Shown here: piece after piece, positions 2 through 52,697 of the stretch | Numbering within the stretch: the stretch's first letter is position 1 | How the letters are laid out: the number at the start of each line of letters is the position of its first letter | DNA from: Asterias amurensis | Lineage: Eukaryota; Echinodermata; Asteroidea; Forcipulatida; Asteriidae | Length of the DNA stretch: 64,000 nucleotides | Assembly: GCF_032118995.1 (NCBI RefSeq) | Contig: NC_092665.1 | Span: 3,942,001 to 4,006,000 of the forward strand | Direction of reading: 5' to 3' | The notes under the pieces: model-generated | What the model was told of the DNA's origin: nothing | The model's input: only the letters and a program-made list of their open reading frames with translations | Databases searched by the model: none | Program-made: the position numbers and the translations under genes

Positions 2-727
2 TTGTTGCCAACTCCGTCAACTGCTATTCTTCTGTGGATGTTTTCGGATATCAACAACAAAGCCAAAGGATTTATCAATCTCACGTTGGATGAGACTTAT
101 AATGGCTATCAATTCCAATGTATAATCACCAGTGACTATTTCACAGGACGACGTAGATCTTGTACCATCGGACCAATCACAGCGACCAATATGACAACTG
201 ATTCTAACGAAGACGCTATAAGCACGGATATGAGATCCGGAACAAAAAACCCTAATGCCATGATAACTGATCATACCTCACTCATAACATCTACTGATAT
301 CTCTAACTGCCATTGCTGTGAATTATGCGAATCCAATGAAGAATCCATCAATACATCTCCTACCCCGTGGCTCGTAGCCTTCATCATCATTCTCATCCTC
401 TTCATTGTCTCTCTCATCATCAATATCTTCTTCCTCATCAAACATCGACATCTTAAGATCACCAAGGAGAAGGAAACCAATGTAGCCAAAGCTGATCCCT
501 ACATGGAGCTGCAACCAACGGAGGATAAGAACAAAGTCTATATGGAACCTACTACGGCTACAACTACCACACAAGATACCTACTACCAACCAGTTGAAGT
601 CGAGACAGACAGCCATGAGTATGAATACGCTCGGCCAGAGGGCAGCACTAACAGTAACACAGACTATGAAGCGGTCAGCAAGCCACAGAGTACAACTGAA
701 AGACCATATCAAGATATTAACAATTAA
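2..727 (+). CDS. Ig receptor 1, YxxP-tail type, 5'-truncated by window edge
   Basis: This is the 3' part of a two-Ig-domain receptor whose 5' half lies before the window. The frame is open from base 2 and encodes the end of Ig domain 2 (LWMF tryptophan, YQFQC cysteine, then CTIGPITV), a stalk with a cysteine cluster (NCHCCELC), a transmembrane helix at about bases 365-440 and a basic KHRHLKITKEKE juxtamembrane segment. The tail of about 90 residues has DPYMEL, VYMEP, TYYQP, YEYARP, DYEAV and PYQDI. YxxP motifs are typical docking sites for Crk/Nck-type SH2 adaptors; no ITIM is present. The gene at 7442 is its closest relative, but here the tail frame is intact. The TAA at 725-727 ends the protein. 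An activating or adaptor-type receptor is inferred. It is surely coding; the ligand is unknown. Confidence 0.85.
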   Translation: MLPTPSTAILLWMFSDINNKAKGFINLTLDETYNGYQFQCIITSDYFTGRRRSCTIGPITATNMTTDSNEDAISTDMRSGTKNPNAMITDHTSLITSTDISNCHCCELCESNEESINTSPTPWLVAFIIILILFIVSLIINIFFLIKHRHLKITKEKETNVAKADPYMELQPTEDKNKVYMEPTTATTTTQDTYYQPVEVETDSHEYEYARPEGSTNSNTDYEAVSKPQSTTERPYQDINN

Positions 728-2014
728 TTTCGGGAAAAAGTATAAAAATACTTCGGAGGATGACGAAAGAACTGTCATGATGACTTGAACTCCGGACACT
801 AACACTTTGGATAACCATGAACACTCGTCAATAACTTGGTGTACATAGTGCTCAGAATAGACATAGGGTATGACATACATTATTAATTGAACCATCAATA
901 TAGTTCCAGCAATGGGCCCTTGTGTGTATATTAAAATGTATATAAAAGCTCTTGTAATCGTAATGTACTTGGAAGACATAACAAGTAATCAAGAACAAAG
1001 TATAATCAATATATAACATTTACGTTTTAGTACATCATAATCATATTTTTTTTCTCGAGGGTATGATATCTCTGAAATACCCCCTTTTGCAGTTAATGGT
1101 GTCGAAAATAATTGATACATACTCAGTTTCCAGTGATTTTATACCAAACGTTCATAACAGTGCATTAAAGTGCAAGAGTCTAGCCATGACATGTTTCGTG
1201 ACATTAATTTCTATATGTAATGGCCTGTATTTCTACCCATTCATGTCTTGAACAATTATGTTTCACATGAAGAGAAAAACTTATTGAAAATTCTAGCAGT
1301 GCTCATTTTAAATCAATGAGTAAATCATTTGATCAAAACCTCTTATTAATAAACAATCCCTTCACAAATGGTAGTGCTTTACATATTTGGGGGTGGGGGG
1401 GGGGGGTAGCAGCAGGGATGTGTACAGAGAGTTGCGACAACTTAGAATGAGAAGGCCATTTTCGGTCACAACAAAACGCATGTGTTCAATGAGGATGGCA
1501 GACTATAATACTGCACTTTAAGCTGTGGTGCACTTGAACTGAAAATGGCATCTAGCAAAACATGCCTAAAGAAAACTTACTACATGTCACAACTCTCTCA
1601 GTGCAGTCTTTAAGTGGCGACGCTGTTTTAATAATAGCCGTAGAGGGCGCAATATCGACTGTTTTGGAGGCTGACTTCGAGGGATTTGCAAGTCTATTGA
1701 CCTTGTTTGTTTTGATCCAGGTCGGGGGGGGGGGGCAAAGTGGTATTTCCCCCAAATATGTTTCCTTTGTCCCAAACAATTCCCATAACACATACACACC
1801 CGAACTCAGTACACTGTGTATAAGAATGGGGAAGAAGTGTAAGATGACTGCAGTTTGTTCTTTCTCCAAAGTTAGTCATTAATTCATCGATATCTACTTT
1901 AATTTGGTTCAAACAATCGTCAGACAAAACACGTTCCACGATGCCACTGGTCTTCATCTTAACAAGTCTTGTGTTGAAAACGCTTCGATACATTTTAGAA
2001 ATCGAATCTGAACA
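728..2014. other. Intergenic 3' flank of receptor 1
   Basis: No gene is supported here. The segment is related to the flank after receptor 3 (about 8719-9410) and to 6170-6640, so it belongs to the duplicated cassette. Poly-G runs lie at about 1389-1406 and 1724-1735. The stretch around 1600-1760 resembles 9750-9920, again as duplicated sequence. Short open frames here are not conserved between the copies. Confidence 0.6.
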
Positions 2015-2358
2015 TCCTTTCCCCTCATTCGTTTCTCAGCCAATCAAATTGTTCTGGCGCCATCACCGGCAGGAAACGCATTTTTACTTAAAGTATTTCC
2101 ACATTAGAAGGGGGGTTTCATACTGCGTGTCTAGTGGAAAATCCCCAAAGAGTCAAAAAAGTTCAATCTGAAAGTTCAAAACTGATGAAGCGTGCGATGT
2201 ATATTTAACACACAGTATTGAAATCCAGGTACCGTATAGCCTTCAATGAATTGAAGTATTTCCTTCAATAATTCAATGTGAGCACTGAGCAGTGTGTATG
2301 GCCTACAGTAATTTACAACCAATGTGATTTCATCCTGACTTACAGAATACTCTCCAAC
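2015..2358 (+). promoter_or_regulatory. Conserved upstream module of receptor 2 (CCAAT box, possible 5' UTR acceptor)
   Basis: The sequence cagccaatcaaatt followed by ctggcgccatcaccggcag lies about 319 bp before the ATG. The same block lies 309 bp before receptor 3 (7133) and 303 bp before receptor 4 (10549). It contains a CCAAT pentamer at 2040-2044 and a TGGCGCCA palindrome. Just before the ATG, a pyrimidine-rich stretch ends in cttacag, then aatactctccaac and ATG. It resembles a 3' splice site, so a non-coding first exon may be spliced here. Promoter function is inferred from conservation only. Confidence 0.45.
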
Positions 2359-4440
2359 ATGGATTTCACATCTTCGTTCAATCGTTCGCTCCTCGTGGTT
2401 TTTATTCTTTTATCTCTGGATACATCTCAGCTCTTTGGGGTCGATTCGCTGAGTCTTCACTTAATGAAACTTTCACCAGGGGGTGATATCGTTGAAGGTG
2501 TCGAAGTGAGGCTCCAATGTAATGCCAGTGGACCTGCAGCAAGTCATGTCATAGAATGGGTTAGAATCTACATGGACGTAGGAGTGATAATAGCAAGGAA
2601 TGGGACAAGTGTAGACCAGAGATATGAACTTACAACATTTAGACAAATGTCTACGTCTGGGATATCAATTCAACAAGTTCTTATCATCAAAAACATCAGT
2701 AAAACAGATACATCATTTACCTGTCGTATTAATGACATTGGAAGCGAAACGATGAGCGGCAATCTTCCGTCAGCTAACATTAGTTTAACTGTTCTTTACT
2801 TCCCATCTCCAATGTACCCTATCTGCTTCCCTAATGGTCCTTTCACTGTACAAGAAGGAACGCTGCAAAATTTGAGCTGCACTTCTGAGAAAGGGAACCC
2901 AACAGTAAGTGTGAGTTTGGTGCCAACTCCGTCAACTGCTATTTTTCTGTGGATGTATTCGGGTATCAACAACGAAGCCAAAAGATTTTTCAACCTCACG
3001 TTGAATGAAACTTATAATGGTTATCAATTCCAATGTATAATCACCAGTGACTATTTCTCAGGACGAAGTGGATGCTGTACCATCGGACCAATCACAGTGA
3101 CCAATATGACAACTGCAAATCCAGGGGAAATTGAGACGACATCCCACCCATCAACAAATGATCTTCTTACATTAGATAATGCTGGGAGCAGTCTCCAATC
3201 AGAAATGAGTACCTCAAGTGATGTGAAGACACCTATTATTCCATCCAGCCTCCCTATTGCAATCATTGCAGGAGCCGGTGGTGCAGGTGGCCTCATACTC
3301 CTCATAATAATAACACTGATTTTACTCTACATTTGTAAATGCTGCTGCTTCAAAGATAAACCAGGCAGACCATCATCATTATGGCTGACTGACTTACCAC
3401 TAGATGAACCAACCCAAGAATCACACACCAACCATGGCATGGATCACAGCGAACCCAAGATGTCCACGAGCGTCTACCAGAATGTGACTGATATGCAAGA
3501 AAATAAAGTTGATCCAAGAATGCCACCACAATCTGCCCCAGAATCACCCCACCTTGACCCACACGACGACGAGGCAGAAGACTTCATCTCTCAAAGAAAA
3601 TTCTCAACTCACTCTGAAAACAATGAGCACAGTCCCAAATCTCCAGGTGTCTCAAGCTTTAAATTAACCAGGTCAGATGATCGCATCACTGACAAGGAAG
3701 ATGGGGAGCATCTTGGAGCAGTAGAGCCCGATGAAGGAGATGCTCCTATGTATGGAGTGGTGAAGAAACCGAATCGCATCTCAAAGGAAATTAAGAAGAA
3801 ACCACCGGAGGTTGCGTCAGATGTACCAGATCCCTGGGCTAATGCTTCCCTCGATCAGCATGAGAGCATGAACCCAGCATCCACCGAGAGTGAGTATGCA
3901 GAGGTGCCATCCTTATCTGCTGACCCAGGCCCAAGAGGGAAGCCAACAGCTATGGTTAAACCTGTGTCCCACACCCCTAAACCACCTGTTCACCCTAAAC
4001 CTGTCACAGATCGTCAATCATCACGCCGTACAAACACTAATCAAGCCCCACCAACTGTTGCCACAAAGCCCGTCAAGAAGTTCAAACCCAGTCAGAGAAA
4101 TCCATTAGGAGATGAGGTTGGGAATCGAGATGAGACCCCTCTGCCTACCCCCGTACTACCGGGTGTACCCCCGCAACCTCCACCACCACCATCGCCTCTC
4201 GTTGACAATGAGGAGAATACATCAGTGGAGGAATACGGCGAGGAAGGAGGCCATGAGGTACCACCGGAAACCCATGTACCTCATGAGGCACCATCGGATA
4301 CCCAGTTACCCCATGAGGCCCATGCAGCCGAAGATCGTGACGTAACGTACGCTGAGCTTGAGTTTCAATCTGCAACATCTGACGCGATGCCTGAACCACA
4401 AGAAGAGCAGACATTGTATGCCAGTATCACGAGTAAGTAG
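2359..4440 (+). CDS. Ig receptor 2, inhibitory (ITIM/ITSM) type
   Basis: This is a single-exon type I membrane receptor of 693 residues. I chose ATG 2359 because it opens directly on a signal peptide (MDFTSSFNRSLLVVF) and matches the starts of receptors 3 and 4; the frame is open from 2278. Ig domain 1 has C54, W67 and C122. Domain 2 has C174, W198 and C226 plus the extra cysteines C156 and C240. A Ser/Thr stalk precedes a transmembrane helix at about 299-325 (glycine-rich AGAGGAGG, then LLIIITLILL) and cysteines at the inner face. The tail of about 365 residues has SVYQNV (also Grb2-type YxN), MYGVV, SEYAEV, a proline-rich stretch (VPPQPPPPPSPL), an ITIM at Y664 (VTYAEL) and an ITSM-like site at Y687 (TLYASI). 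SHP-type phosphatase docking is inferred. Domain 2 resembles receptors 1 and 3, while the rest resembles receptor 4. Confidence 0.9.
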   Translation: MDFTSSFNRSLLVVFILLSLDTSQLFGVDSLSLHLMKLSPGGDIVEGVEVRLQCNASGPAASHVIEWVRIYMDVGVIIARNGTSVDQRYELTTFRQMSTSGISIQQVLIIKNISKTDTSFTCRINDIGSETMSGNLPSANISLTVLYFPSPMYPICFPNGPFTVQEGTLQNLSCTSEKGNPTVSVSLVPTPSTAIFLWMYSGINNEAKRFFNLTLNETYNGYQFQCIITSDYFSGRSGCCTIGPITVTNMTTANPGEIETTSHPSTNDLLTLDNAGSSLQSEMSTSSDVKTPIIPSSLPIAIIAGAGGAGGLILLIIITLILLYICKCCCFKDKPGRPSSLWLTDLPLDEPTQESHTNHGMDHSEPKMSTSVYQNVTDMQENKVDPRMPPQSAPESPHLDPHDDEAEDFISQRKFSTHSENNEHSPKSPGVSSFKLTRSDDRITDKEDGEHLGAVEPDEGDAPMYGVVKKPNRISKEIKKKPPEVASDVPDPWANASLDQHESMNPASTESEYAEVPSLSADPGPRGKPTAMVKPVSHTPKPPVHPKPVTDRQSSRRTNTNQAPPTVATKPVKKFKPSQRNPLGDEVGNRDETPLPTPVLPGVPPQPPPPPSPLVDNEENTSVEEYGEEGGHEVPPETHVPHEAPSDTQLPHEAHAAEDRDVTYAELEFQSATSDAMPEPQEEQTLYASITSK

Positions 4441-5714: not shown

Positions 5715-5781
5715 TAATCGTAATGTACAAGGAAACATAAAAATAACAGTAGGCCAATCAATGTTTTACATTTACGTTTAA

Positions 5782-7441: not shown

Positions 7442-8599
7442 ATGGATTTAACAACTTGGTTCAATCGTTCGCTCCTTGTTGTTTTCATTTTGTGTTCTTT
7501 GGATACATCTCAGCTCTTTTGGGTTGATTCACAAAGTGTAAGTTTACGAAGAATTTCATCAGGGGCTGATATCGTTGAAGGTGACGAAGCGAGGCTCCAG
7601 TGTGACGTCAGTGTACTTGCACCAAGTCATGTCATAGAATGGGTTCGAATCTACATGGACGTAGGAGTGATAATAGCATGGAATGGGACAAGTCTAGACC
7701 AGAGATATGAAACTTTCAGACCAATGTCTACGTCTTGGAGATCAATTCAAGAAGTTCTTTTCATCAAAAACATCAGTAAAACAGATACATCAATAACTTG
7801 TCGTATAAATAACTCTGGGAGCGAAATGATGAACAGCAGTTTTCCGTTTTCAACTAACATTAATTTATATGTTCATTACTTCCCATCACCAATGTACCCT
7901 ATCTGCATCCCTGATGGTCCTTTCACTGTACAAGAAGGAACGCTGCAACATTTGAGCTGCACAACGGAGAAAGGGAACCCAACAGTTAACATGGAATTGT
8001 TGCCAACTCCGTCAACTGCTATTATTTCTTCTGTGGATGTTTTCGGATATCAACAACGAGAAGCCAGACGATTTATCAATCTCACGTCGGATGAGACTTA
8101 TAATGGCTATCAATTCCAATGTATAATCACCAGTGACTATTTCTCAGGACGGAACAGATCTTGTACCATTGGACCAATCACAGTGACCAATATGACAGCT
8201 GAATCTACCGAAGACGCTAATACAGAGATGGAATCCAGAACAGATAACCCTAACGCCATGATGACCGATCAAACCTCACCCATACCCTCAACTGATATCC
8301 CTAACTGCCATTGCTGTAAATTATGCAAATTCACTGAAGAATCCATCAATACATCTCCTACTCCGTGGCTCGTAGCCTTCATCACCAGCCTCATTTTCTT
8401 CATTGTCTCTCTCATCATCAACCTCTTCCTCCTCATCAAACATCGACATCTTAAGATCACCAAGGAGAAGGAAACCAATGTAGCCAAAGCAGATCCCTAC
8501 ATGGAGCTGCAACCAACGGAGGACAAGATAAAGTCTATATGGAACCTACTACGGCTACAACTACCACACAAGATACCTACTACCAACCAGTTGAAGTAG
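7442..8599 (+). CDS. Ig receptor 3, YxxP-type with frameshifted tail
   Basis: This receptor has 385 residues in one exon. The start shares the signal peptide with receptor 4 (MDLTTWFNRSLLVVF). Ig domain 1 has C54, W67 and C120. Domain 2 has C173 and C227 with extra C155 and C241, and a cysteine cluster follows (C289, C291, C292, C295). The transmembrane helix is at about 308-333, then KHRHLKITKEKE and DPYMEL. At about 8528, one base is missing compared with receptor 1 (aagataaag against aagaacaaag). The frame shifts after residue 362 and ends 23 residues later, losing all YxxP motifs. In domain 2, a +4 and a later +2 insertion cancel, so the core tryptophan region is replaced by SSVDVFGYQQRE. 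Domain 1 is nearly identical to receptor 4. It is either a decaying gene or a receptor reduced to one tyrosine motif. Confidence 0.75.
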   Translation: MDLTTWFNRSLLVVFILCSLDTSQLFWVDSQSVSLRRISSGADIVEGDEARLQCDVSVLAPSHVIEWVRIYMDVGVIIAWNGTSLDQRYETFRPMSTSWRSIQEVLFIKNISKTDTSITCRINNSGSEMMNSSFPFSTNINLYVHYFPSPMYPICIPDGPFTVQEGTLQHLSCTTEKGNPTVNMELLPTPSTAIISSVDVFGYQQREARRFINLTSDETYNGYQFQCIITSDYFSGRNRSCTIGPITVTNMTAESTEDANTEMESRTDNPNAMMTDQTSPIPSTDIPNCHCCKLCKFTEESINTSPTPWLVAFITSLIFFIVSLIINLFLLIKHRHLKITKEKETNVAKADPYMELQPTEDKIKSIWNLLRLQLPHKIPTTNQLK

Positions 8600-10851: not shown

Positions 10852-12921
10852 ATGGATTTAACATCTTGGTTCAATCGTTCGCTCCTCGTGGTTTTTATTC
10901 TGTGTTCTCTGGATACATCTCAGCTCTTTTGGGTCGATTCACAAAGTGTAAATTTACAAAAAATTTCATCAGGGGTTGATATCGTTGAAGGTGACGAAGT
11001 GAGGCTCCAATGTGATGTCAGTGGACTTGCACCAAGTCATGTCATAGAATGGGTTAGAATCTACATGGACGTAGGAGTGATAATAGCAAGGAATGGGACA
11101 AGTCTAGACCAGAGATATGAACTTCAAACATTTAGACCAATGTCTACGTCTGGGATATCAATTCAAGAAGTTCTTTTCATCAAAAACATCAGTAAAACAG
11201 ATACATCATTTACCTGTCGTATAAATGACACTGGAAGCAAAATGATGAGCAACAATCTTCCGTTCAGTAACATGAATTTATATGTTCATTACTTCCCATC
11301 ACCAATGTACCCCATCTGCTTCCCTAATGGTAATTTCACTGTACAAGAAGGAACGGAGCAAAAGATGGGCTGCATATCAGAGAGAGGGTATCCACAGGTA
11401 ACATTGTCGATTCTACCCAGTGAAGCAACTGCTATTTATGTGTGGATGCTTACAGAAAACATTTCCGAAATAGAACGATGTACCCATCTCGAACTGAATG
11501 ACAGTCATAATGGTTATCAATTCGAATGTAAGATGACCTCTTCAGAAAGAGTTAAATCCTGTATCATCGGACCAATCACAGTGACTAACATGACCACTGC
11601 AAATCCTTGGGAAAATGAGTCAACATCCCACCCAGCAAAAACTGATCTTCTTACAACAGATAATGCTGGGAGCAGTCTTCCATCAGAAATGAGCACCGCA
11701 GGTGATGTGAAGATCATTCCATCCAGCCTCCCTATACTCATTATAGCAGGAGCCGGTGGTGCAGGTGGCCTCATACTCCTCATAATAATAATACTGATTG
11801 TACTCTGCGTTTGTAAATGCTGCTGCTTCAATGATAAACCAGGCAGACCATCATCATTATGGCTGACTGACTTACCACTAGATGAACCAACCCAAGAATC
11901 ACACACCAACCATGGCATTGATCACAGCGAACCCAAGATGTCCACGAGCGTCTACCAGAATGTACCTGACATGCAAGAAAATAAAATTGTTCCAAGAGTG
12001 CCACCACAATCTGCCCCAGAACTATCCCACCTTGACACACATGACGACGAGGCAGAAGACTTCATCTCTGAAAGAAAATTTTCAACTCACTCTGAAAACA
12101 ATGAACACAGTCCCAAATCTCCAGGGGTTTCAAGCTTTAAATTGACCAGGTCAGATGATCGCATCACTGACAAGGAAGATGGGGAGCATCTTGGAGCAGT
12201 AGAGCCCGATGAAGGAGATGCTCCTATGTATGGAGTGGTGAAGAAACCGAATCGCGTCTCAAAGGAAATTAAAAAGAAACCACCGGAGATTGCGTCAGAT
12301 GTTCCAGATCCCTGGGCTAATGCTTCTCTCGATCAGCATGAGAACATGAACCCACCAGCATCCACCGAGAGTGAGTATGCAGAGGTGCCATCCTTATCTG
12401 CTGACCCAGGCCTAAGAGGGAAGCCAACGGCTATGGTTAAACCTGTGTCCCACACCCCTAAACCACCAGTTCACCCTAAACCTGTCACAGACCGCCAATC
12501 ATCACGACGTACAAACACTAATCAAGCCCCACCAAGTGTAGCCAAAAAGCCCGTCAAAAAGTTTACACCCAGTCAGAGAAACCCATTAGGAGATGAGGTT
12601 GGGAATCGAGATGAGGCACCTCTGCCTACCCCCGTACTACCGGGTGTACCCCCACAACCTCCACCACCGGCATCGCCTCTCGTTGACCATGAGGAGAATG
12701 CATCAGTGGAGGAATACGGCGAGGAAGGAGGCCATGAGGTATCATCGGAAACCCATGTACCTCATGATGCACCATCGGATACCCAGTCACCCCATGAGGC
12801 CCATGCAGCCGAAGATCGTGACGTAACGTACGCTGAGCTTGAGTTTCAATCTGCAACATCTGACGCGATGCCTGAACCACAAGAAGAGCAGACATTGTAT
12901 GCCAGTATCACGAGTAAGTAG
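10852..12921 (+). CDS. Ig receptor 4, inhibitory (ITIM/ITSM) type
   Basis: This is a single-exon receptor of 689 residues. The signal peptide is MDLTSWFNRSLLVVF. Ig domain 1 has C54, W67 and C122. Domain 2 has C174, W198 and C226 with extra C156 and C237. Its sequence (SERGYPQVTLSI, TENISEIERC) is unlike domain 2 of receptors 1-3, although everything else nearly matches receptor 2. The transmembrane helix is at about 294-321. Tail motifs in order: SVYQNV, MYGVV, SEYAEV, a proline-rich segment, the ITIM at Y660 (VTYAEL) and the ITSM-like site at Y683 (TLYASI). It is the second gene of the second copy of the ~8.5-kb cassette. An inhibitory role through an SH2 phosphatase is inferred from the motifs; the ligand is unknown. 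Confidence 0.9.
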   Translation: MDLTSWFNRSLLVVFILCSLDTSQLFWVDSQSVNLQKISSGVDIVEGDEVRLQCDVSGLAPSHVIEWVRIYMDVGVIIARNGTSLDQRYELQTFRPMSTSGISIQEVLFIKNISKTDTSFTCRINDTGSKMMSNNLPFSNMNLYVHYFPSPMYPICFPNGNFTVQEGTEQKMGCISERGYPQVTLSILPSEATAIYVWMLTENISEIERCTHLELNDSHNGYQFECKMTSSERVKSCIIGPITVTNMTTANPWENESTSHPAKTDLLTTDNAGSSLPSEMSTAGDVKIIPSSLPILIIAGAGGAGGLILLIIIILIVLCVCKCCCFNDKPGRPSSLWLTDLPLDEPTQESHTNHGIDHSEPKMSTSVYQNVPDMQENKIVPRVPPQSAPELSHLDTHDDEAEDFISERKFSTHSENNEHSPKSPGVSSFKLTRSDDRITDKEDGEHLGAVEPDEGDAPMYGVVKKPNRVSKEIKKKPPEIASDVPDPWANASLDQHENMNPPASTESEYAEVPSLSADPGLRGKPTAMVKPVSHTPKPPVHPKPVTDRQSSRRTNTNQAPPSVAKKPVKKFTPSQRNPLGDEVGNRDEAPLPTPVLPGVPPQPPPPASPLVDHEENASVEEYGEEGGHEVSSETHVPHDAPSDTQSPHEAHAAEDRDVTYAELEFQSATSDAMPEPQEEQTLYASITSK

Positions 12922-19398: not shown

Positions 19399-19733
19399 AA
19401 ACTATTCCTTTTAAAAACAGCAAAAAAATCATCTGTCAAAATTCGTTTCAGAGAAAATATTATTTACAACAACATCACTCCTTTCGGCGAAAATCGGGCC
19501 ACGGAACAAAACTGAAGCACAGCAGCTCGAGAGTGCTATGTTTTTACTCCATTATAAAGAATTCGGGTGGTTTGTTTCAAAGAAAATCCGACGAAATCCC
19601 CAGTATGCAGGAAACGGGACAGTTCTCTAACCGTTTAACACGCGATGGCCACACATTGTTGTGTTAATTCAACTGAAACAATTTCCTGCGTTTTTGCTTT
19701 AAATTGATGAGTTTTAATACCAAAGTCAAAGTA

Positions 19734-22256
19734 ATGACCATCATGGATCGAATGTGTAGGTTGGTGTGTGTGCTCCTGCTCTGTGTTTTGAGCCATCTGA
19801 ATGCAGGTCAGTGTTTAATTCAGACCAGTGTGCCTATTTCTAGAGTTGAGCCAACTGGGGAGCAAGATACCGTAGAGGGCGATAGGGTGGTACTTCAATG
19901 CAGAACCCTTCACCAGAATGGCATTATTGAGTTGTCGAGATATGCCTCCCCTGAAACACAGTTCAATGGGGAGATAGTGGCTCGCAATGGACAAAGCTTA
20001 GACAAATACACGCTTAATCGAAATGTCGTTGGGGCTTCTTTTCTGTTCACGGATGAGGTACAGACCCTGACATTTACTGCGAATAGAAATGACACGTCAT
20101 TTTTCACTTGCCGTCTGAGGAACTCACTGCTAGTAATAGCTTCAGACTCTTTGCTGTTACCAGTGCTTTACTTCCCATCTGCCATATACCCACTCTGCTT
20201 CCCTAATGGTCCTTACACAGTACAAGAAGGAGAGACAGTAAACATGAGCTGTACTACTGAGAGAGGGAACCCACCAGTACAGGTACATATATCTTCCATT
20301 TCCACTAATAATGTGATACGGATACCAACTGCAGATCTTAAAGGTGAGCCCACAAGGTCTGTTATAGAGCTAACAATAAACGCATCAGACGATGGTAGTT
20401 CGTTTAAATGTAGAATCGTTTCTACGGCAACGAAACTCAATAATTCTGAAAATTCCTGCATCTTCGGACCAATAACTGTACTTTATATGACAACTGAACA
20501 CGAAGAAAACAAAACACTGGCCTTCACTTCAGTACCGCATACTTCTGAGGTGGCCGTTTTTCAGACAACTTCTATATGGATTCCAGTCTCCGTGGTTTTC
20601 GGTGTTTCTTGCATCCTAATCACCTTCTTCCTTGTTAGACATTGTAAGATCACCAAGGAGAAGGAAACCAAAGTAGCAAAAGCTGATCCCTACACGGAGC
20701 TGCAACCAACGGATGATGAGAACACTGTATACATAGAACCCACGGCTACACCTACCACGCAAGAAGCAGAGAAGGAAAGCCGAGAGGATGGTTACCTTCG
20801 ACCACGGCCACATCCCAAGGAGCAAAGAAGGAATCACCAAGTCAGTGTGCACGTTGACCCAACACCAAACTCAGAAGCAACTACCACACAAGATACCTAC
20901 TACCAGCCAGTTGAAGAAGAGACTGGCAGCCCAGATGATGACTACCTTCGACCACGGCCACATGATCTCAAGGAGCAAAGACAGAACCACCAAGTCAGAG
21001 TGCACGTTGACCCAACACCAAACTCACGAACAACTAACACTCAAGACACCTACTACCAGCCAGTTGAAGTAGATAAGGAAATCCAAGAGGATGGCTACGC
21101 TCGGCCAGATGATCCCAAGGAGCAAAGAAAGAATTACCAAGTCAGTGTGCACGTTGACCCAACACCAAACTCAGAAGCAACTGGCACTCAACACACCTAC
21201 TACCAACCAGGAGAGACAGACAGCCCAGTGTATGACTACGTTCGACCTGATGATCACAAGGAGCAAAGAAAGAATTACCAAGTCAGTGTGCACGTTGACC
21301 CAACACCAAACTCAGAAGCAACTGGCACTCAACACACCTACTACCAACCAGGAGAGACAGACAGCCCAGTGTATGACTACGTTCGACCTGATGATCACAA
21401 GGAGCAAAGAAAGAATTACCAAGTCAGTGTGCACGTTGACCCAACACCAAACTCAGAAGCAACTGGCACTCAACACACCTACTACCAACCAGGAGAGACA
21501 GACAGCCCAGTGTATGACTACGTTCGACCTGATGATCACAAGGAGCAAAGAAAGAATTACCAAGTCAGTGTGCACGTTGACCCAACACCAAACTCAGAAG
21601 CAACTGGCACTCAACACACCTACTACCAACCAGGAGAGACAGACAGCCCAGTGTATGACTACGTTCGACCTGATGATCACAAGGAGCAAAGAAAGAATTA
21701 CCAAGTCAGTGTGCACGTTGACCCAACACCAAACTCAGAAGCAACTGGCACTCAACACACCTACTACCAACCAGGAGAGACAGACAGCCCAGTGTATGAC
21801 TACGTTCGACCTGATGATCACAAGGAGCAAAGAAAGAATTACCAAGTCAGTGTGCACGTTGACCCAACACCAAACTCAGAAGCAACTGGCACTCAACACA
21901 CCTACTACCAACCAGGAGAGACAAACAGCCCAGTGTATGACTACGCTCGGCCAGAGGGCAGCACTAGCACCGACTATGAAGCTACCAGACAGCAGTGTCA
22001 AGCTGCTGCTGAGAGACAACATCAGAATATTAACAATAACAACGACAACAACAATGAGAAAAAAAGGCGGGTTGGTACAGTTATAAGCCCAAATTTTGAC
22101 TTTGTGCCAGAAGGTAGCACCAAAATCAGTGAAGCGGTCGGAAAGCCAGATAATTTAGCTGAGAAACCATATCAGAATGTTAAAAATAATAAAACAAAAA
22201 GACGGCTTGGTGTTGTTTTCAATCCTACAAAACACTTAGCTTTAAATGTTTCTTAA
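19734..22256 (+). CDS. Ig receptor 5, YxxP-type with amplified docking tail
   Basis: This is a single-exon receptor of 840 residues. I chose ATG 19734 because ATGACCAT matches the ATGACCATG starts downstream; ATG 19707 and 19743 are alternatives. The signal peptide is followed by Ig domain 1 (C56, C126; the core Trp is replaced in IIELSRY) and domain 2 (C173, C226; extra C155 and C242; no core Trp). The transmembrane helix is at about 281-301. The juxtamembrane KITKEKETKVAKADPYTEL is shared with receptors 1 and 3. The tail of about 540 residues carries TVYIEP, YLRP and repeated TYYQP and YDYVRP motifs, about 18 YxxP in all, in 47-residue units that also contain NYQVSV. It ends with DYEAT and PYQNV. 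YxxP arrays dock Crk-type adaptors in scaffold proteins such as p130Cas; that role is inferred here. No ITIM is present. Confidence 0.88.
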   Translation: MTIMDRMCRLVCVLLLCVLSHLNAGQCLIQTSVPISRVEPTGEQDTVEGDRVVLQCRTLHQNGIIELSRYASPETQFNGEIVARNGQSLDKYTLNRNVVGASFLFTDEVQTLTFTANRNDTSFFTCRLRNSLLVIASDSLLLPVLYFPSAIYPLCFPNGPYTVQEGETVNMSCTTERGNPPVQVHISSISTNNVIRIPTADLKGEPTRSVIELTINASDDGSSFKCRIVSTATKLNNSENSCIFGPITVLYMTTEHEENKTLAFTSVPHTSEVAVFQTTSIWIPVSVVFGVSCILITFFLVRHCKITKEKETKVAKADPYTELQPTDDENTVYIEPTATPTTQEAEKESREDGYLRPRPHPKEQRRNHQVSVHVDPTPNSEATTTQDTYYQPVEEETGSPDDDYLRPRPHDLKEQRQNHQVRVHVDPTPNSRTTNTQDTYYQPVEVDKEIQEDGYARPDDPKEQRKNYQVSVHVDPTPNSEATGTQHTYYQPGETDSPVYDYVRPDDHKEQRKNYQVSVHVDPTPNSEATGTQHTYYQPGETDSPVYDYVRPDDHKEQRKNYQVSVHVDPTPNSEATGTQHTYYQPGETDSPVYDYVRPDDHKEQRKNYQVSVHVDPTPNSEATGTQHTYYQPGETDSPVYDYVRPDDHKEQRKNYQVSVHVDPTPNSEATGTQHTYYQPGETDSPVYDYVRPDDHKEQRKNYQVSVHVDPTPNSEATGTQHTYYQPGETNSPVYDYARPEGSTSTDYEATRQQCQAAAERQHQNINNNNDNNNEKKRRVGTVISPNFDFVPEGSTKISEAVGKPDNLAEKPYQNVKNNKTKRRLGVVFNPTKHLALNVS
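20780..21960 (+). repeat. 141-bp coding tandem repeat in the receptor 5 tail
   Basis: The units are 141 bp (47 codons). Five units from 21230 to 21934 are essentially identical, with starts at 21230, 21371, 21512, 21653 and 21794. A partial sixth follows, and about three diverged units precede at 20780-21229. Because the unit length is a multiple of three, an overlapping +1 frame also stays open (21091-22086). Near-identity implies recent expansion, and allele length is likely to vary. Confidence 0.92.
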
Positions 22257-34401: not shown

Positions 34402-34403
<2 letters not shown>

Positions 34404-36961: not shown

Positions 36962-38950
36962 ATGACCATGTCTCGAGGGTATTGGTTGTTGCATCTACTC
37001 ATGGTGTGGTGCTCTCTGGAACGACTCATAGCAGTCAATGCACAGACTGCGACAATCAGTAAGGTATCACCAATGGGTGATCCTATAGAGGGTAACGTAG
37101 TGGAGCTAAGATGTCAAGCTGAAGGCTTGCTGGCGGGTTATATCATTGAGTGGACGAGGATGGAGGAGGAGGCCCAGGAGGTATCAATAGCCCGGAATGG
37201 AATGAGTGTGGATTCGAGATTCAAGCTTCATTTGACGTCAACTGGTGCTCAATTTCGGTTTGAGACACTTGCTTTTAACGCTATCAAGCAAAACACAGCA
37301 GTGATTTACGGTTGCCGAGTGAGGGACTCTGTTGGGCTGAATAGCACTGTATGGGCTGAAGCGCAACCTCTCTCCTTTACAGTGCGTTACTTCCCATCTG
37401 CCATGTATCCCATCTGCATTCCTAATGGTCCTTTCACCGTTCAAGAAGGGGCGACGGTAAACTTGAGCTGCGCTACTGAGACAGGAAACCCACCGGTATA
37501 TATGGAGAATATTGCGAGTAGTGTCGTCTATGTATGGACTTACAATAAAGATAGTAAAGAACAAATGAGATCATTACAACTGAATGCTACTGCAGCTGAT
37601 GACGGTGGTTCTTATCAATGTAAAATCAGCCCGGATCCCACTGGCTCGACACCATTCACAGGAATGAACAGGTCATGTACGATCGGACCAATAACTGTTG
37701 GCCCACCGACAACCGAGAATACACCAAACTTCAATACGCAGACTACAGCAGACGTATCAAATAATCCAACATCTGTGCCACAATCTACTACACCCGACCC
37801 CGATGAAACTACAGCCAAGCCTCCAGATGACACGACGACCATGGTGAGTCCACCGACAACTTCTTTCCCTATTGTCATCATAGCAGGAGCAGCAGGAGGA
37901 GGCGGCCTCTTAATCGTCTTACTTATTATCTTATTGATACTCTACCTATGCAAATGTGGATGCTTCAAGAAAGACAAACAACACCCAACATTATGGCAAA
38001 CTAGTGTACCACTTACTGAGTCTAATGATCACAACGAGCCGTGGGGAAAACACTCAGGGTCCATCGGTCAAGACGTGAAAGAAATGAGAGAATTAAACCC
38101 CACTCCGGGTTTCATTCAAGAACCTGAGACGGAGGATGCACTAGAGATGAAGGAGATGGAGACTTCTGCAGGAGGAGATGTAGTGTACGCCCAACCACGG
38201 AAGAAGTCCACTTCCAAAGAACAGAATAAAGACGAAATTGGTCGTCCTCAAGGAACTGACGCAACAGGCGTTGATGCCGAGGATGCAGGAGCAGAGGTAG
38301 ATGAAACTGGTGGTGGTGAGAGCCCACCCGTGTACGGTAAGGTACAGAAGACCAAAAACAAACCACAACACAAAGAAGAGAGAATGTCTGAAGATGATCA
38401 TGCTGAGTTATGGCAAAGCACTGACCCACCACCAGGACTCATTGAAGACAATTATACGGAGATACCAAACATGACTGCCATTAATCCTGGTTTAAAACCA
38501 ACAGCATTGGTCAAGCCAGTCGTGCACCCAACCGTCTCTAAACCTGAAGACGATCTTCAATCATCACCCCACAGCAACGATGGAGCTTCCCCCAGTGTTG
38601 GGGATAAGCCTAGTATCAAGAAGTTTCAACCTAAGGATCGGTCCGAGAGCCAGCCACCAAGAGGTGGTTCCAATCCAGCCAGAGCAACTTCCTCAGCCGA
38701 GCAACCACAATCGCCTGATGACTGGTCGTATCCTATCGAGCAACATGGACACACACCTCAATATGATCCCAATGAGGAAGCGAGGTATGCCGAGGTATCA
38801 CACGATCACGCGCAACCTCATGAGGCTACAACACCAGATGATCATCATGACATTACATATGCTGAGCTTGATTTAAACCCACCGACATCAGACGCGAAGC
38901 CGCAACCCAAGGAAGATCAGACACTGTACGCTAGCATTGTGATGGACTAG
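36962..38950 (+). CDS. Ig receptor 8, inhibitory (ITIM/ITSM) type, unit 3
   Basis: This is a single-exon receptor of 662 residues starting MTMSRGYWLLHLLMVWC. Its two Ig domains have the family cysteines (ELRC to IYGC; NLSC to SYQC) and tryptophans, with the extra pair in YPICIPNG and SCTIGP. The transmembrane helix follows TTSFPIVIIAGAAGGGG. Tail tyrosines are VVYAQP, PVYGKV, NYTEIP, QYDPN, RYAEV, the ITIM at Y633 (ITYAEL) and the ITSM-like site at Y656 (TLYASI). The NYAQP tyrosine of its relatives is replaced by histidine (DHAQP). Domain 2 has YMENIASS and TYNKDSKEQ, different from its neighbours. An inhibitory role is inferred. Confidence 0.9.
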   Translation: MTMSRGYWLLHLLMVWCSLERLIAVNAQTATISKVSPMGDPIEGNVVELRCQAEGLLAGYIIEWTRMEEEAQEVSIARNGMSVDSRFKLHLTSTGAQFRFETLAFNAIKQNTAVIYGCRVRDSVGLNSTVWAEAQPLSFTVRYFPSAMYPICIPNGPFTVQEGATVNLSCATETGNPPVYMENIASSVVYVWTYNKDSKEQMRSLQLNATAADDGGSYQCKISPDPTGSTPFTGMNRSCTIGPITVGPPTTENTPNFNTQTTADVSNNPTSVPQSTTPDPDETTAKPPDDTTTMVSPPTTSFPIVIIAGAAGGGGLLIVLLIILLILYLCKCGCFKKDKQHPTLWQTSVPLTESNDHNEPWGKHSGSIGQDVKEMRELNPTPGFIQEPETEDALEMKEMETSAGGDVVYAQPRKKSTSKEQNKDEIGRPQGTDATGVDAEDAGAEVDETGGGESPPVYGKVQKTKNKPQHKEERMSEDDHAELWQSTDPPPGLIEDNYTEIPNMTAINPGLKPTALVKPVVHPTVSKPEDDLQSSPHSNDGASPSVGDKPSIKKFQPKDRSESQPPRGGSNPARATSSAEQPQSPDDWSYPIEQHGHTPQYDPNEEARYAEVSHDHAQPHEATTPDDHHDITYAELDLNPPTSDAKPQPKEDQTLYASIVMD

Positions 38951-40970: not shown

Positions 40971-41585
<615 letters not shown>

Positions 41586-44187: not shown

Positions 44188-46212
44188 ATGACCATGTCTC
44201 GAGGGTGCTGGTTGTTGCATCTTCTCCTGGTGTGGTGCTCTCTGGAACGAGGTGCCAATGCATTGGGCGTTACAATCACTAAGGTATCACCAGTGGGTTA
44301 TCCTGTAGAGGGTAACGTAGTGGAGCTACGATGTCAAGCTTCTGGCTTGCTGGCGGGTTATATCATTGAGTGGACGAGGATGGAGGATTCCCAGGATGTA
44401 TCAGTAGCCCGGAATGGAATGAGTGTGGATTCGAGATACACGCTTTCTATACTGGCGTCTGGGGCTCAAACTAAGTTTGAGGCACTTACTTTTAATGCTA
44501 CCAGGGAGGACACAGCAGTGATTTACGGTTGCCGAGTGAGGGACTCTGTTGGGCTGAATAGCACTGTATTGGCTGAAGCGCAACCTCTCTCTTTAACAGT
44601 GCTTTACTTCCCATCTGCCATGTACCCCATCTGCATTCCTAATGGTCCTTTCACTGTACAAGAAGGAACGATAGTAAACATGAGCTGCACTACTGAGATA
44701 GGAAACCCAAAGGTAACTATGCAGATTTTTGCGCATATGGACAGCTCTGTGTATACATGGACTTACACTAGCGATATTAAAGAACAAATGAGATCATTAC
44801 AGCTGAGTGTAACTGCAGCTAATGACGATGGTCTTTATCGATGTCAAATCAACCCAGACTCCACAGGCTCATCACCATTTACAGGAATGAAAAGCGCATG
44901 TTCGATAGGACCAATAACTGTTGGCCCAATGACAACCGAGAACACACCAAACGTCAATACGCCGACCACACCAGACTTATCGAACAGTCCAACAACTGAT
45001 GTGTCACCATCGACTACACCCGACCCTGATGAAGCTACAGCCCGGCCTCATGAAGCTACAGCTCGGCTTGATGAAGGTACAGCCCGGCCTGAAGACACGA
45101 CAACCGTGACTTCACCGACAACTTCGTTCCCTATTGCCATTATAGCAGGAGCAGCAGGAGGAGGCGGCCTCTTAATCGTCTTACTTATTATCTTATTGAT
45201 ACTCTACCTATGCAAATGTGGATGCTTCAAGAAAGACAAACAACACCCAACATTATGGCAAACTAATGTACCACTTACTGAGTCAAATGATCACAACGAG
45301 TCGTGGGGAAACCACTCAGGGTCCATCGGTCAAGACGTGGAGGAAATGAGAGAAATAAACCCTACTCCGGATTTCATTCAAGAACCTGAGACGGAGAATG
45401 CGCTAGAGATGAAGGAGATGGAGACTTCTGCAGGAGGAGATGTAGAGTACGCCCAACCACGGAAGAAGTCGACTTCCAAAGAACAGAATAAAGACGAAAT
45501 TGGTCATCCTCAAGGAACTGACGCAACAGGCGTTGATGCCGAGGATGCAGGAGCAGAGGTAGATGAGACTGGTGGTGATGAGAGCCCACCCGTGTACGGT
45601 AAGGTACAGAAGACTAAAAATAAACCACAACACAAAGAATACAGAATATCTGAAGATGATCATGCTGAGGTATGGCAAAGCACTGACCCACCACCAGGAC
45701 TCATTGAAGACAATTATACGGAGATACCAAACATGACTGCCATTAATCCTGGTTTAAAACCAACAGCAGTGGTCAAGCCAGTCGTGCACCCAACCGTCTC
45801 TAAACCTGAAGACGATCTTCAATCATCACCACACAGCAACGATGGAGTTTCCCCTAGTGTTGGGGATAAGCCAATTATCAAGAAGTTTCAACCCAAGGAT
45901 CGGTCCGTGAGCCAGCCTCAAAGAGGAGGTTTCAATCCAAACAGAGCAACTTCCTCAGCCGAGCAACCACAATCAACTGATGACTGGTCGCCTCCTATTG
46001 AGCAACATGGACACACACCTCAAGATGATCCCAATGAGGAAGCGAGGTATGCTGAGGTATCACATAATTACGCGCAACCTCATGAGGCTACAACACCAGA
46101 TGATCATCATGACATTACGTATGCTGAGCTTGATTTAAACCCACCGACATCAGACGCGATGCCTCAACCCCAGGAAGAACAGACACTGTACGCTAGCATT
46201 GTGATGGACTAG
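44188..46212 (+). CDS. Ig receptor 9, inhibitory (ITIM/ITSM) type, unit 4
   Basis: This is a single-exon receptor of 674 residues starting MTMSRGCWLLHLLLVWC. Its two Ig domains have the family cysteines, with domain 2 distinctive (IFAHMDSSVYTW, DDGLYRC, KSACSIGP). The stalk is longer because a seven-residue unit is repeated (EATARPH, EATARLD, EGTARPE). The transmembrane helix is of the AGAAGGGG type. Tail tyrosines are VEYAQP, PVYGKV, EYRIS, NYTEIP, RYAEV, NYAQP, the ITIM at Y645 (ITYAEL) and the ITSM-like site at Y668 (TLYASI). Its 3' flank is the most diverged of the four units, so it is probably the oldest branch. The tail is still nearly identical to the others, which suggests constraint or homogenisation. 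An inhibitory role is inferred. Confidence 0.9.
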   Translation: MTMSRGCWLLHLLLVWCSLERGANALGVTITKVSPVGYPVEGNVVELRCQASGLLAGYIIEWTRMEDSQDVSVARNGMSVDSRYTLSILASGAQTKFEALTFNATREDTAVIYGCRVRDSVGLNSTVLAEAQPLSLTVLYFPSAMYPICIPNGPFTVQEGTIVNMSCTTEIGNPKVTMQIFAHMDSSVYTWTYTSDIKEQMRSLQLSVTAANDDGLYRCQINPDSTGSSPFTGMKSACSIGPITVGPMTTENTPNVNTPTTPDLSNSPTTDVSPSTTPDPDEATARPHEATARLDEGTARPEDTTTVTSPTTSFPIAIIAGAAGGGGLLIVLLIILLILYLCKCGCFKKDKQHPTLWQTNVPLTESNDHNESWGNHSGSIGQDVEEMREINPTPDFIQEPETENALEMKEMETSAGGDVEYAQPRKKSTSKEQNKDEIGHPQGTDATGVDAEDAGAEVDETGGDESPPVYGKVQKTKNKPQHKEYRISEDDHAEVWQSTDPPPGLIEDNYTEIPNMTAINPGLKPTAVVKPVVHPTVSKPEDDLQSSPHSNDGVSPSVGDKPIIKKFQPKDRSVSQPQRGGFNPNRATSSAEQPQSTDDWSPPIEQHGHTPQDDPNEEARYAEVSHNYAQPHEATTPDDHHDITYAELDLNPPTSDAMPQPQEEQTLYASIVMD

Positions 46213-49064: not shown

Positions 49065-49068
49065 AACG

Positions 49069-50954: not shown

Positions 50955-52520
50955 ATGATGGCTCAAAGGTGTATGTTTGTGCATTTACTGCTGCTTTGTG
51001 TGTGGTGTATTGATACAAAGTTCCAAGGTGCCAATGCACAGAATGTGACCATCTCAAAAGTACAACCAATTGATGATCCCGCAGAGGGTGGCTATGTGGA
51101 CCTGCGATGTAATGCCACCAACCTCACACCAGGTGACTCCATTGAATGGTCAAGATTATACATGCATGCTGAAGTTATTATACGTCCAAGTTTTGAAACC
51201 CCACAGTACACTCAATATACAGAGACATCTTCAGAACAATCTTTGGTTCAGAGGTTCAAAATTAACATTTTGACAAGAGATGACACGGGACTTTACTACT
51301 GCAAGGTGAAGAATTCTGACGGGACCGTAGAGGAAACAGCAAGTATCTATGTAACGGTGCGTTACTCACCATCAGCTGAGTACCCCTTGTGCTCTCCCAA
51401 TGGTCCTTTAACTGTACAAGAAGGAACAACTCAACAATTCCATTGTACAACTGAAAGAGGGAGCCCGTTAGTAAGAATGCTTATACTCAAGAACGGTTCA
51501 GTTATTTCCCCAGAGTCATTGTTGGGAAATGCTACAACTTTTACAAAGTCCCACACCTTCACATTTACTGGAGATGACAATGGTACATCTGTCAAATGTA
51601 AAATCATCTCTTTCCCGTTACAAAGAAATTGCACATTCGGACCAATCACTGTAACAATGCGAGATGCTCAAGATTCTCAGCAACCACTAACCCTGGGAAA
51701 TAGCACCACCCCTCAAACCGATGCAACAAGCGAGAGTTCGGACACAGGTTATCCAATGTGGACGGAATCTACGACAGGCAGTAGTCGGCAAATTATAAAC
51801 CAAACAACCCCTCAAGAATCTGTAAACACATCAACACCCATTCAAGAAACTCCAACCCCATCAGCACCCAGCAGCCGAACTTCAAACCCATCAACGCCTG
51901 CTATTCAAGAAACTGTAAACACATCAACACCCAGTCAGCCGACCCCAACCCCATCAACACCCAGCAGGCAGGAAACTTCAAAACCTCCAACCGCTAGTCA
52001 GGAAACTCTAAACCTACAAGCAATTGGTCTCCCGATCGTAGTTATAGCACTAATCGCAGGAGGCTTGATCTCCTTACCGATACTACTGATAATTGTACTA
52101 TGTTGCTGTTATTACAAGAAGAAGCAGAAACCCAGACAACCACATATCAACCTACCACTGTTTCAACCGACTACGGACTTGGTTTTCGAGCCGCAAGGAG
52201 TTCACCATATCATTCGTAAAGAGTCTACAAATCTGGACAAAGATGACATGACTGAGAAGGATGATTCATCAGAGGGATTTGGTGCCGATCAAAAACCCAC
52301 ACCTGAGTTCATGTCACCATTCATGGTATCACCTTCTCCAACTACTGAGCCTGAGGACAACCGATCTACGGTCATCAAAAATGGCACCAGTACATCTCCA
52401 ACCGATGTTGATAAGAAGAGCATCAACAAGACGTTCACATCTCAGCCTGAGCTTACTACAGACAAAGATGACTCTAAAGAAGCCCATGGAGAGGTTCTCC
52501 GTCCAGATGAGCCTCACTAG
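50955..52520 (+). CDS. Ig receptor 10, ITIM tail cut by an in-frame TAG
   Basis: The annotated frame gives 521 residues, from ATG 50955 (the upstream open frame begins with a TTG). The signal peptide is MMAQRCMFVHLLLLCVWC. Ig domain 1 ends in a canonical DDTGLYYC; its opening side (LRC, IEW) matches the family. Domain 2 runs from QFHC to VKC with the extra pair in YPLCSPNG and NCTFGP. It lacks a core Trp. A long Ser/Thr/Pro stalk with repeated TSTPSQ-like units suggests dense O-glycosylation. The transmembrane helix is LPIVVIALIAGG followed by LLIIVLCCCYY. The tail ends at TAG 52518-52520, before any ITIM. It is the most divergent member, and the protein as read would be unable to dock through ITIM/ITSM. 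Confidence 0.8.
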   Translation: MMAQRCMFVHLLLLCVWCIDTKFQGANAQNVTISKVQPIDDPAEGGYVDLRCNATNLTPGDSIEWSRLYMHAEVIIRPSFETPQYTQYTETSSEQSLVQRFKINILTRDDTGLYYCKVKNSDGTVEETASIYVTVRYSPSAEYPLCSPNGPLTVQEGTTQQFHCTTERGSPLVRMLILKNGSVISPESLLGNATTFTKSHTFTFTGDDNGTSVKCKIISFPLQRNCTFGPITVTMRDAQDSQQPLTLGNSTTPQTDATSESSDTGYPMWTESTTGSSRQIINQTTPQESVNTSTPIQETPTPSAPSSRTSNPSTPAIQETVNTSTPSQPTPTPSTPSRQETSKPPTASQETLNLQAIGLPIVVIALIAGGLISLPILLIIVLCCCYYKKKQKPRQPHINLPLFQPTTDLVFEPQGVHHIIRKESTNLDKDDMTEKDDSSEGFGADQKPTPEFMSPFMVSPSPTTEPEDNRSTVIKNGTSTSPTDVDKKSINKTFTSQPELTTDKDDSKEAHGEVLRPDEPH

Positions 52521-52697
52521 ACAAAGCCTCCTACAGGTGAGATTGTGTACTCTGAGGTGTCAATCCAAGAGGGTGTACCTCAAGTCTCGTCTTCGTATAC
52601 TACGTACGCTGACCTTGATCTATCACCGTGTACATCGGCCACGTTACCTTTGCCCAAAGAAGACCAAACGCTTTACGCTCAAATTACCAATCTTTAG
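52521..52697 (+). CDS. In-frame ITIM-bearing extension after the TAG of receptor 10
   Basis: Directly after TAG 52518-52520, the same frame stays open for 58 codons to TAG 52695-52697. It encodes EIVYSEV, the ITIM TTYADL and the ITSM-like TLYAQI, with the latter two tyrosines 23 residues apart as in all the other ITIM receptors. The frame and motifs are conserved, so the TAG is a recent nonsense change, a polymorphism, an assembly error or a readthrough site. Which of these cannot be told from the sequence alone. Confidence 0.8.
   Translation, partial: TKPPTGEIVYSEVSIQEGVPQVSSSYTTYADLDLSPCTSATLPLPKEDQTLYAQITNL

What the first reader, a model, noticed from the sequence alone, without database searches (positions are those of the whole stretch)
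2..52697. Ten-gene tandem cluster of single-exon, two-Ig receptors not matching a family I can name
All ten genes lie on one strand in 52 kb. Nine are complete and each runs from signal peptide to stop in a single open frame. Ig receptors normally have one domain per exon, so intronless coding suggests an ancestral retrocopy that then duplicated in tandem, which is an inference. The fixed signature (YPxCxPxGPxTVQEG and CxxGPITV) defines the family. This is the best candidate here for an undescribed immune-type receptor system.
Basis: partly seen in the sequence, partly recalled or inferred. Interest (0 to 1): 0.88.

Follow-up and report, generated by a model that had tools for sequence, protein, structure and literature searches.

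The report
Starfish paired immune-type receptor genes
A starfish genome holds a large family of intron-free cell-surface receptor genes whose related outer parts are joined either to a probable "stop" tail or to a probable "go" tail, a layout best known from vertebrate immune receptors.

Summary
The cluster is real: ten two-Ig genes on one strand, each read from DNA as one coding frame. Two of the nine called complete are damaged (gene 3: tail frame lost; gene 10: in-frame TAG before its ITIM pair). The genome is Asterias amurensis (longest scaffold length matches the published one). The window is one of many clusters: one query found 149 related places, 137 in stop-free frames of at least 300 aa. 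The ectodomain probably descends from the kirrel adhesion family: an intronless three-Ig relative matches Roughest best, and an intron-containing kirrel-type locus carries the family's unusual extra Ig2 cysteine pair (0 of 8 control Ig exons do). So the retrocopy idea is supported and the family can be placed. Five clusters, the window's included, mix two tails on related ectodomains. The long tail ends in an ITIM plus ITSM-like pair; the short tail has YxxP, YxN and, mostly, a relaxed ITAM-like pair. Tail type does not follow the ectodomain tree (one long-tail clade rejected, p-AU 2e-7). Best reading: a germline paired-receptor repertoire grown from a kirrel-type retrogene. Immune or allorecognition function is inferred; no expression data exist here. 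My searches of open-licence papers found no description.

The parts
2..727 (+). Gene 1, partial: end of Ig2, TM, short (S) tail with YMEL, YMEP, YYQP, YARP, YQDI
2359..4440 (+). Gene 2 (P0001): signal peptide, Ig1, Ig2, TM, long (L) tail ending VTYAEL ... TLYASI
7442..8599 (+). Gene 3 (P0002): two Ig, TM, S tail whose frame is lost after YMELQPTEDK; remainder of the S tail in another frame to about 8709
10852..12921 (+). Gene 4 (P0003): two Ig, TM, L tail
19707..22256 (+). Gene 5 (P0004): two Ig, TM, S-type tail enlarged by a tandem repeat rich in YxxP (14 in the second half of the protein)
20812..21949 (+). 141-bp in-frame tandem repeat, 7.9 copies, in the tail of gene 5
23791..25770 (+). Gene 6 (P0005): two Ig, TM, L tail
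30155..32134 (+). Gene 7 (P0006): two Ig, TM, L tail
36962..38950 (+). Gene 8 (P0007): reference member; two Ig, TM, L tail
37043..37387 (+). Ig1 of gene 8
37388..37702 (+). Ig2 of gene 8 with the signature and four invariant Cys (ordinary pair plus the Cys of YPxC and of CxxGPITV)
37967..38947 (+). Long cytoplasmic tail of gene 8
38852..38869 (+). ITIM motif ITYAEL of gene 8
38921..38938 (+). ITSM-like motif TLYASI of gene 8, Tyr 23 residues after the ITIM Tyr
44188..46212 (+). Gene 9 (P0008): two Ig, TM, L tail
50955..52520 (+). Gene 10 (P0009): two Ig, long Ser/Thr-rich stalk, TM, tail ended by an in-frame TAG
52521..52697 (+). Same-frame continuation of gene 10 behind the TAG, holding TYADL and TLYAQI, then stop

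Best explanation
The window holds part of a large germline family of intronless two-Ig receptors that probably arose from a kirrel-type cell-recognition gene by an old retrocopy and spread by tandem and dispersed duplication. Clusters keep a pool of related ectodomains joined to one of two signalling tails. The L tail carries an ITIM and an ITSM-like motif 23-28 residues apart and should recruit tandem-SH2 phosphatases (inhibitory). The S tail carries YxxP, YxN and mostly a relaxed ITAM-like pair and should recruit adaptors or kinases (activating). Related ectodomains with opposed tails would let one ligand set be read with either sign, as in vertebrate paired receptors. Shown by sequence: open frames, family size, the two tails, their independence of the ectodomain tree. 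Supported but not proven: kirrel descent, retrocopy. Inferred: surface expression, phosphorylation, SH2 partners, the sign of each tail, ligands, a role in coelomocytes.
Against: No expression, ligand or signalling data. Strict ITAM in 0 of 28 S tails; charged TM window in 1 of 28 S genes but 6 of 16 L genes, the reverse of the usual activating pattern. The CC'/FG concentration is not seen in the window's own groups: 0.75 against 0.59, 35 of 221 shifts as high, in nine sequences (genes 6-9 and five C18 relatives); 0.29 against 0.46 in four sequences (genes 2-4 and L039). Pooled dN/dS is below 1 in Ig1 (0.72-0.87) and Ig2 (0.61-0.96) of the three larger groups; above 1 only in Ig1 and signal peptide of the gene 2/gene 4 pair (1.53, 1.32) and in signal peptide and stalk of C13 L genes (1.80, 1.24). 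Kirrel descent: the D2 exon's profile E-value (2.7e-6) is not far from the best of eight control exons (1.5e-5 to 0.21), the kirrel D1 exon gives only 0.043, and gene 8 alone finds antibodies first and SYG-2 at E 0.37. 57 of 149 places matched neither tail. Ten label changes are no fewer than in shuffled labels (9.8), which fits swapping but also repeated tail gain or loss. No other species could be searched.
Confidence: 0.55

Rival explanations
1. A kirrel-derived adhesion or cell-fusion family (like kirrelL, needed for skeletogenic cell fusion) whose tails link to the cytoskeleton; not an immune repertoire.
For: Probable descent from kirrel. kirrelL is an intronless echinoderm Ig protein required for cell fusion (PMC8903837, passages). 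YxN and YxxP motifs also fit adaptor links to actin (recalled). The window's own groups show no concentration of variation in one face.
Against: Copy number and two tails side by side in five clusters and a conserved terminal ITIM and ITSM-like pair fit a recognition repertoire better than a fixed developmental role.
Confidence: 0.23
2. Gamete or species recognition receptors diversified by sexual selection.
For: Large gene number and variable Ig1 segments in C13; retrogenes are often expressed in the germ line (recalled).
Against: Two kinds of tyrosine-motif tail on one ectodomain pool have no use there that I know of; expression was not testable.
Confidence: 0.08
3. A decaying array, largely pseudogenes or assembly copies, without a coherent function.
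For: Gene 3 frame loss and gene 10 TAG; 4 of 149 places with stops inside and 9 in frames under 300 aa, one place being both; three pairs of identical proteins between 18.868-18.880 and 19.030-19.042 Mb on C13.
Against: 137 of 149 places are open; pooled dN/dS of tails 0.44-0.64 in three groups; terminal Tyr pair kept across diverged tails.
Confidence: 0.05

Closest known systems
Echinoderm KirrelL (PMC8903837, passages read)
   Same: Intronless echinoderm Ig transmembrane gene; retrotransposition raised as its origin
   Different: Presented as one gene for skeletogenic cell fusion; the passages read mention no ITIM tails or arrays.
Kirrel/Roughest/SYG-1 adhesion proteins
   Same: Roughest is the best named match of the intronless relative L052 and the lowest-rmsd two-domain match of the model
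   Different: Kirrel proteins have five Ig domains (recalled) and the C19 locus is split into exons; these genes have two Ig in one frame and ITIM-type tails. Fly Roughest lacks the first extra D2 Cys in the alignment.
Botryllus fester co-receptors, FcoR (PMC12065747, passages read)
   Same: Invertebrate Ig receptors of one locus with ITIM or hemITAM/core-motif tails, read as opposed signals
   Different: V-type Ig, sushi and two C2-type Ig domains; each encoded beside a fester gene; some loci swap motifs by alternative splicing. Here two Ig, single frames, two separate kinds of gene for the two tails.
Vertebrate paired receptors (KIR, LILR, SIRP, SIGLEC, CEACAM)
   Same: Arrays, related ectodomains with opposed tails, ITIM/ITSM pairs (recalled). 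CEA is the best profile match in the PDB, CEACAM1 third and fourth
   Different: Activating members usually couple through a charged TM residue to ITAM adaptors (recalled); here S tails carry their own tyrosines and 27 of 28 TM windows are uncharged. Exon-split genes (recalled). Likely convergent.
Hydractinia Alr allorecognition family (Huene et al. 2022; recalled, paper not held)
   Same: Clustered invertebrate Ig receptors with tyrosine-motif tails
   Different: Different Ig domains, intron-containing, linked to allorecognition by genetics (all recalled)

Membership tests
Immunoglobulin superfamily | Ig folds with canonical Cys pair | tested here: met
   Pfam Ig models over the curated cut-off in 6 of 10 window proteins (genes 5-10), below it in genes 2-4, none in the partial gene 1; model of two beta-rich domains, mean pLDDT 81, under 50 at residues 160-170
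Kirrel/Roughest/SYG-1 | D1-D2 sequence relationship | tested here: inconclusive
   Indirect, through L052 and the shared extra D2 Cys pair (0 of 8 control exons). Direct tests are weak: gene 8 against the PDB, kirrel D1 exon E 0.043, D2 exon E 2.7e-6 against controls down to 1.5e-5
Kirrel/Roughest/SYG-1 | Five-Ig ectodomain | tested here: not met
   Two Ig then TM in the intact window genes
Echinoderm KirrelL class | Intronless Ig transmembrane gene | tested here: met
   137 of 149 places in open frames of 300 aa or more; read from DNA only
Echinoderm KirrelL class | Sequence identity to a published KirrelL protein | not testable with these tools
   No collection of eukaryote proteins was on hand
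Paired inhibitory/activating receptors | Closely related ectodomains on different tails | tested here: met
   Gene 8 (L) and L013 (S) 79% identical; C13 ectodomains of both tails at median 84%; tree and AU test
Paired inhibitory/activating receptors | ITIM in the inhibitory member | tested here: met
   Motif only. 16 of 16 L frames, but the class was defined by that motif, and two of the 16 lie behind a broken ectodomain. Independent of the definition: L048 and L051, from other clusters, end in TAYAEL/PIYATV and VIYAEL/TIYAQI; L049 has ITIM-like motifs but lacks the terminal one
Paired inhibitory/activating receptors | Charged TM residue for an ITAM adaptor in the activating member | tested here: not met
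   1 of 28 S-type TM windows charged, 6 of 16 L-type
ITAM receptors | YxxL/I-x(6-12)-YxxL/I | tested here: not met
   Strict 0 of 28 S tails; relaxed with Val 22 of 28
Paired immune receptors | Expression on immune cells and opposed signalling | not testable with these tools
   No RNA or functional data

The most novel reading that the evidence does not exclude
This is the sea-star self/non-self receptor system: a kirrel adhesion gene was turned by retroposition into a germline repertoire of paired inhibitory and activating receptors on coelomocytes, independently inventing the logic of vertebrate NK-type receptors and supplying the unknown molecules behind starfish allograft rejection.
Probability: 0.25. 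Interest if true: 0.93.

Novelty: new variant of a known kind. Interest (0 to 1): 0.75.

Why it matters
Starfish coelomocytes show allorecognition (Patiria pectinifera, PMC9763293), and the word receptor does not occur in that paper's main text. A clustered, ITIM-bearing, two-tailed Ig family gives direct candidates. It would also be an independent origin of paired-receptor logic from an adhesion gene, with a likely intron-bearing relative still in the genome, so the steps can be followed.

Tried and rejected
Rejected: the PF01520 Amidase_3 match in gene 5, confined to the tail repeat and read as repeat inflation (not tested further). Rejected: direct descent from antibodies or CEACAMs; the structure matches and profile matches to these are read as broad Ig likeness. 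Inconclusive: positive selection (the script stopped with an error during the two-gene comparison, so its TM and tail rows and the fifth set were not computed). Lower tail dS holds for genes 6-9 but not against Ig2 in C13 (tail 0.11 and 0.08, Ig2 0.11 and 0.06). A DNA pattern scan of the genome was unspecific: 763 forward and 784 reverse, reversed control 767 and 685. L053 (C9) gave no frame of 200 aa.

Counts and their limits: the tree used 49 of the 57 frames (8 incomplete or duplicate ones left out; a fallback end where the end motif was missing). One search listed 43 ectodomain references; one search aligned 41 (two C13 copies left out). One search used 39 of the 41, leaving out the two without an intact tail class; the earlier tree had been seen before its clade test. 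One search classed 44 of 51 frames; 7 stayed unclassed, two of them C13 genes called short-tailed. The 149 places come from one query with 150 scored of 195 candidates, so a lower bound, and three C6 places share one frame. The tables were typed from the outputs, and split tail matches were merged by hand. CC' and FG segments were chosen after seeing the profile.

Literature: ten searches (32 was for the species) of open-licence PMC text listed no paper that I could see to describe this family; subscription papers are not covered. Papers were seen as passages only, the rest as listings; PMC9546547 was not held.

Not done: a second structure prediction, RNA evidence, any other echinoderm genome.
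Full report
What is there. The window is C18:3942001-4006000 of a 491.5-Mb genome in 23 contigs. Its contig C1 is 38,009,675 bases, exactly the longest scaffold of the Asterias amurensis assembly in PMC10625585 (passages), so the species is taken as that starfish. Ten two-Ig genes lie on the + strand. Intact members have a signal peptide, two Ig domains, a stalk, a hydrophobic segment and a tail in one frame. Gene 1 is cut by the window edge, gene 3 loses its frame in the tail, and gene 10 has a TAG at 52518-52520 ahead of its ITIM pair. The exact signatures are absent from 100 shuffled windows. Signal peptides and TM segments are read from hydrophobicity, not from a dedicated predictor.

How large the family is. 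Gene 8 as query gave 67 matches (67 scored of 243 candidates). The gene 10 ectodomain gave 149 (150 scored of 195). Of these, 137 lie in stop-free frames of at least 300 aa, 9 in shorter frames and 4 contain stops, one being both. They form clusters on C18 (3.94-3.99, 4.19-4.22, 4.38-4.47, 15.80-15.90 Mb), C13 (37 places in 18.87-19.05 Mb), C10 (11 within 55 kb of the contig start) and C1 (14 at 25.59-25.67 Mb), besides smaller groups. As contrast, 35 of the 55 PF08205 matches lie on C19, all in frames of 111-203 aa, as expected for one domain per exon.

Where it comes from. A frame on C14 (L052) has three Ig domains and the same Ig2 pattern (YPTC ... CEVGPL). Its best solved-structure match is Roughest (1.1e-9), followed by CEA, SYG-2 and SYG-1. 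The family profile aligns to it over both Ig domains (E 2.4e-9). Searching the genome with L052 gave 44 matches (78 scored of 153 candidates), 42 in frames of at least 300 aa; the two shorter ones are C14:14819760 (183 aa) and C19:11409043 (137 aa). The C19 locus (L054) has a D1 exon with splice-like borders whose best matches are KIRREL3 (4.6e-12), KIRREL1 and SYG-1 (the stretch sent ran a few codons past the donor site). About 2 kb on, a D2 exon carries YPLC ... CELPPL, the same extra Cys pair as the family; that both exons belong to one gene is presumed. None of 8 other PF08205 exons fetched has this pair. Profile E-values alone do not settle it: 2.7e-6 for the D2 exon, 1.5e-5 to 0.21 for the 8 controls, 0.043 for the kirrel D1 exon. 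Fly Roughest lacks the first extra Cys in the alignment shown. The two-domain model (mean pLDDT 81) superposes on Rst D1-D2 with 4.4 A over 196 residues, the lowest rmsd of the 50 rows shown, next 5.8; the list is otherwise antibodies. An old retrocopy of a kirrel-type gene is the simplest reading, about 0.7; the same origin was suggested for kirrelL (PMC8903837).

Two tails. L tails end in an ITIM and an ITSM-like motif, 23-28 residues apart, near the C-terminus; L049 departs, lacking the terminal motif. Five L tails from four clusters (two of them from the window's) keep this pair while the rest aligns poorly. S tails carry YMEL, YMEP, YxxP and YQN. A relaxed ITAM-like pair (Val allowed) is in 22 of 28 S tails and 0 of 16 L tails, and in 285 of 5600 shuffled S tails; a strict ITAM is in none. 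Gene 5 and some relatives enlarge the S tail by YxxP repeats. Placing tail matches beside ectodomain matches gives 64 S, 28 L and 57 neither; five clusters hold both kinds: the window's (6 L, 4 S), C13 (9, 28), C10 (4, 7), C18:4.38-4.47 (6, 3) and C1:25.59-25.67 (3, 6). L051, in C18 at 15.9 Mb, is among the neither but ends in VIYAEL ... TIYAQI, so some of the 57 are L-like and too diverged for the queries.

Tails and ectodomains. On 39 ectodomains (11 L, 28 S) the tail label needs 10 changes, starred branches force at least 5, and one clade of L is rejected (p-AU 2.0e-7). The count is like that of shuffled labels (9.8), meaning no visible link between ectodomain and tail in this set. Gene 8 (L) and L013 (S) share 79% of the ectodomain. 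In genes 6-9 the tail has lower dS (0.07) than Ig1 (0.17) or Ig2 (0.24), which fits homogenised tails, but in C13 the tail is no lower than Ig2. Gene conversion itself was not tested.

Where it varies. In 23 sequences (22 from C13, one from C10) entropy is highest in Ig1 segments 38-56 (CC') and 92-103 (FG): mean 1.26 against 0.35, with 0 of 211 circular shifts as high; I picked the segments after seeing the profile. The window's own groups do not repeat this: nine sequences (genes 6-9 and five C18 relatives) give 0.75 against 0.59 (35 of 221 shifts as high), and four (genes 2-4 and L039) give 0.29 against 0.46. In kirrel-type proteins this side of D1 is the binding face (recalled). Pooled dN/dS is raised but below 1 in the Ig domains of the three larger groups; in the gene 2/gene 4 pair Ig1 gives 1.53.

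How it most likely works. Binding of a ligand or partner by the ectodomain would be read out with opposite sign by L and S members. L would recruit tandem-SH2 phosphatases; S would recruit adaptors or Syk-type kinases. Steps shown: anatomy, family size, two tails, independence of tail and ectodomain. Supported: kirrel descent and retrocopy. Inferred: expression, phosphorylation, partners, sign, ligand. Confidence is about 0.7 for kirrel descent, 0.55 for the whole explanation, 0.25 for the allorecognition reading.

Known or new. My open-licence PMC searches (listed under Tried and rejected) showed nothing on this family. A 2026 review lists large germline families, complement-like molecules and lectins for echinoderms, with no such Ig receptors in the passages seen (PMC13428168). 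PMC11090083 on A. amurensis reports expanded families enriched for immune response, but the words immunoglobulin and kirrel do not occur in its main text. The nearest systems in logic are Botryllus FcoR (PMC12065747) and vertebrate paired receptors. I therefore rate it a new variant of a known kind.

Noticed in passing
26199-26310, 32573-32642, 39379-39448 and 29873-29920, 36703-36747, 43888-43935: A 21-bp repeat downstream of genes 6-8 and a 19-bp repeat upstream of genes 7-9 mark a duplicated unit of about 6.4-7.2 kb
   Followed up: partly
41332-41583: A perfect TAT microsatellite of 84 units
   Followed up: no
63175-63598: A 141-bp tandem repeat, 3 copies, 98% matches; same period as the gene 5 tail repeat but a different consensus
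   Followed up: no
window 20812-21949 (gene 5 tail): Pfam Amidase_3 match at 1.8e-16 within the repeat, probably repeat inflation
   Followed up: no
C13 18.868-18.880 and 19.030-19.042 Mb (L020, L021, L036, L037): Segments about 162 kb apart encode identical proteins (three pairs); a recent duplication or an assembly copy
   Followed up: no
C13 18927668-18928315 (L026): Reverse-transcriptase-like frame (by eye) inside the C13 receptor cluster
   Followed up: no
L054 (C19:11408900-11411600): The kirrel-type locus seems to hold a second D1-like domain split over two exons between the D1 and D2 exons
   Followed up: partly
C10 2-54 kb: A receptor cluster lies at the very start of the contig, perhaps near a chromosome end; its L tails are 91-95% identical to a C13 L tail
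   Followed up: no
L051 (C18:15.9 Mb): Tail with repeated YxQV units before a terminal ITIM and ITSM-like pair; a third tail style
   Followed up: partly
C2, C6, C7, C9, C14: A wider class of Ig genes in single frames of up to 1242 aa exists beyond the two-Ig family; intronless Ig genes seem common in this genome
   Followed up: partly
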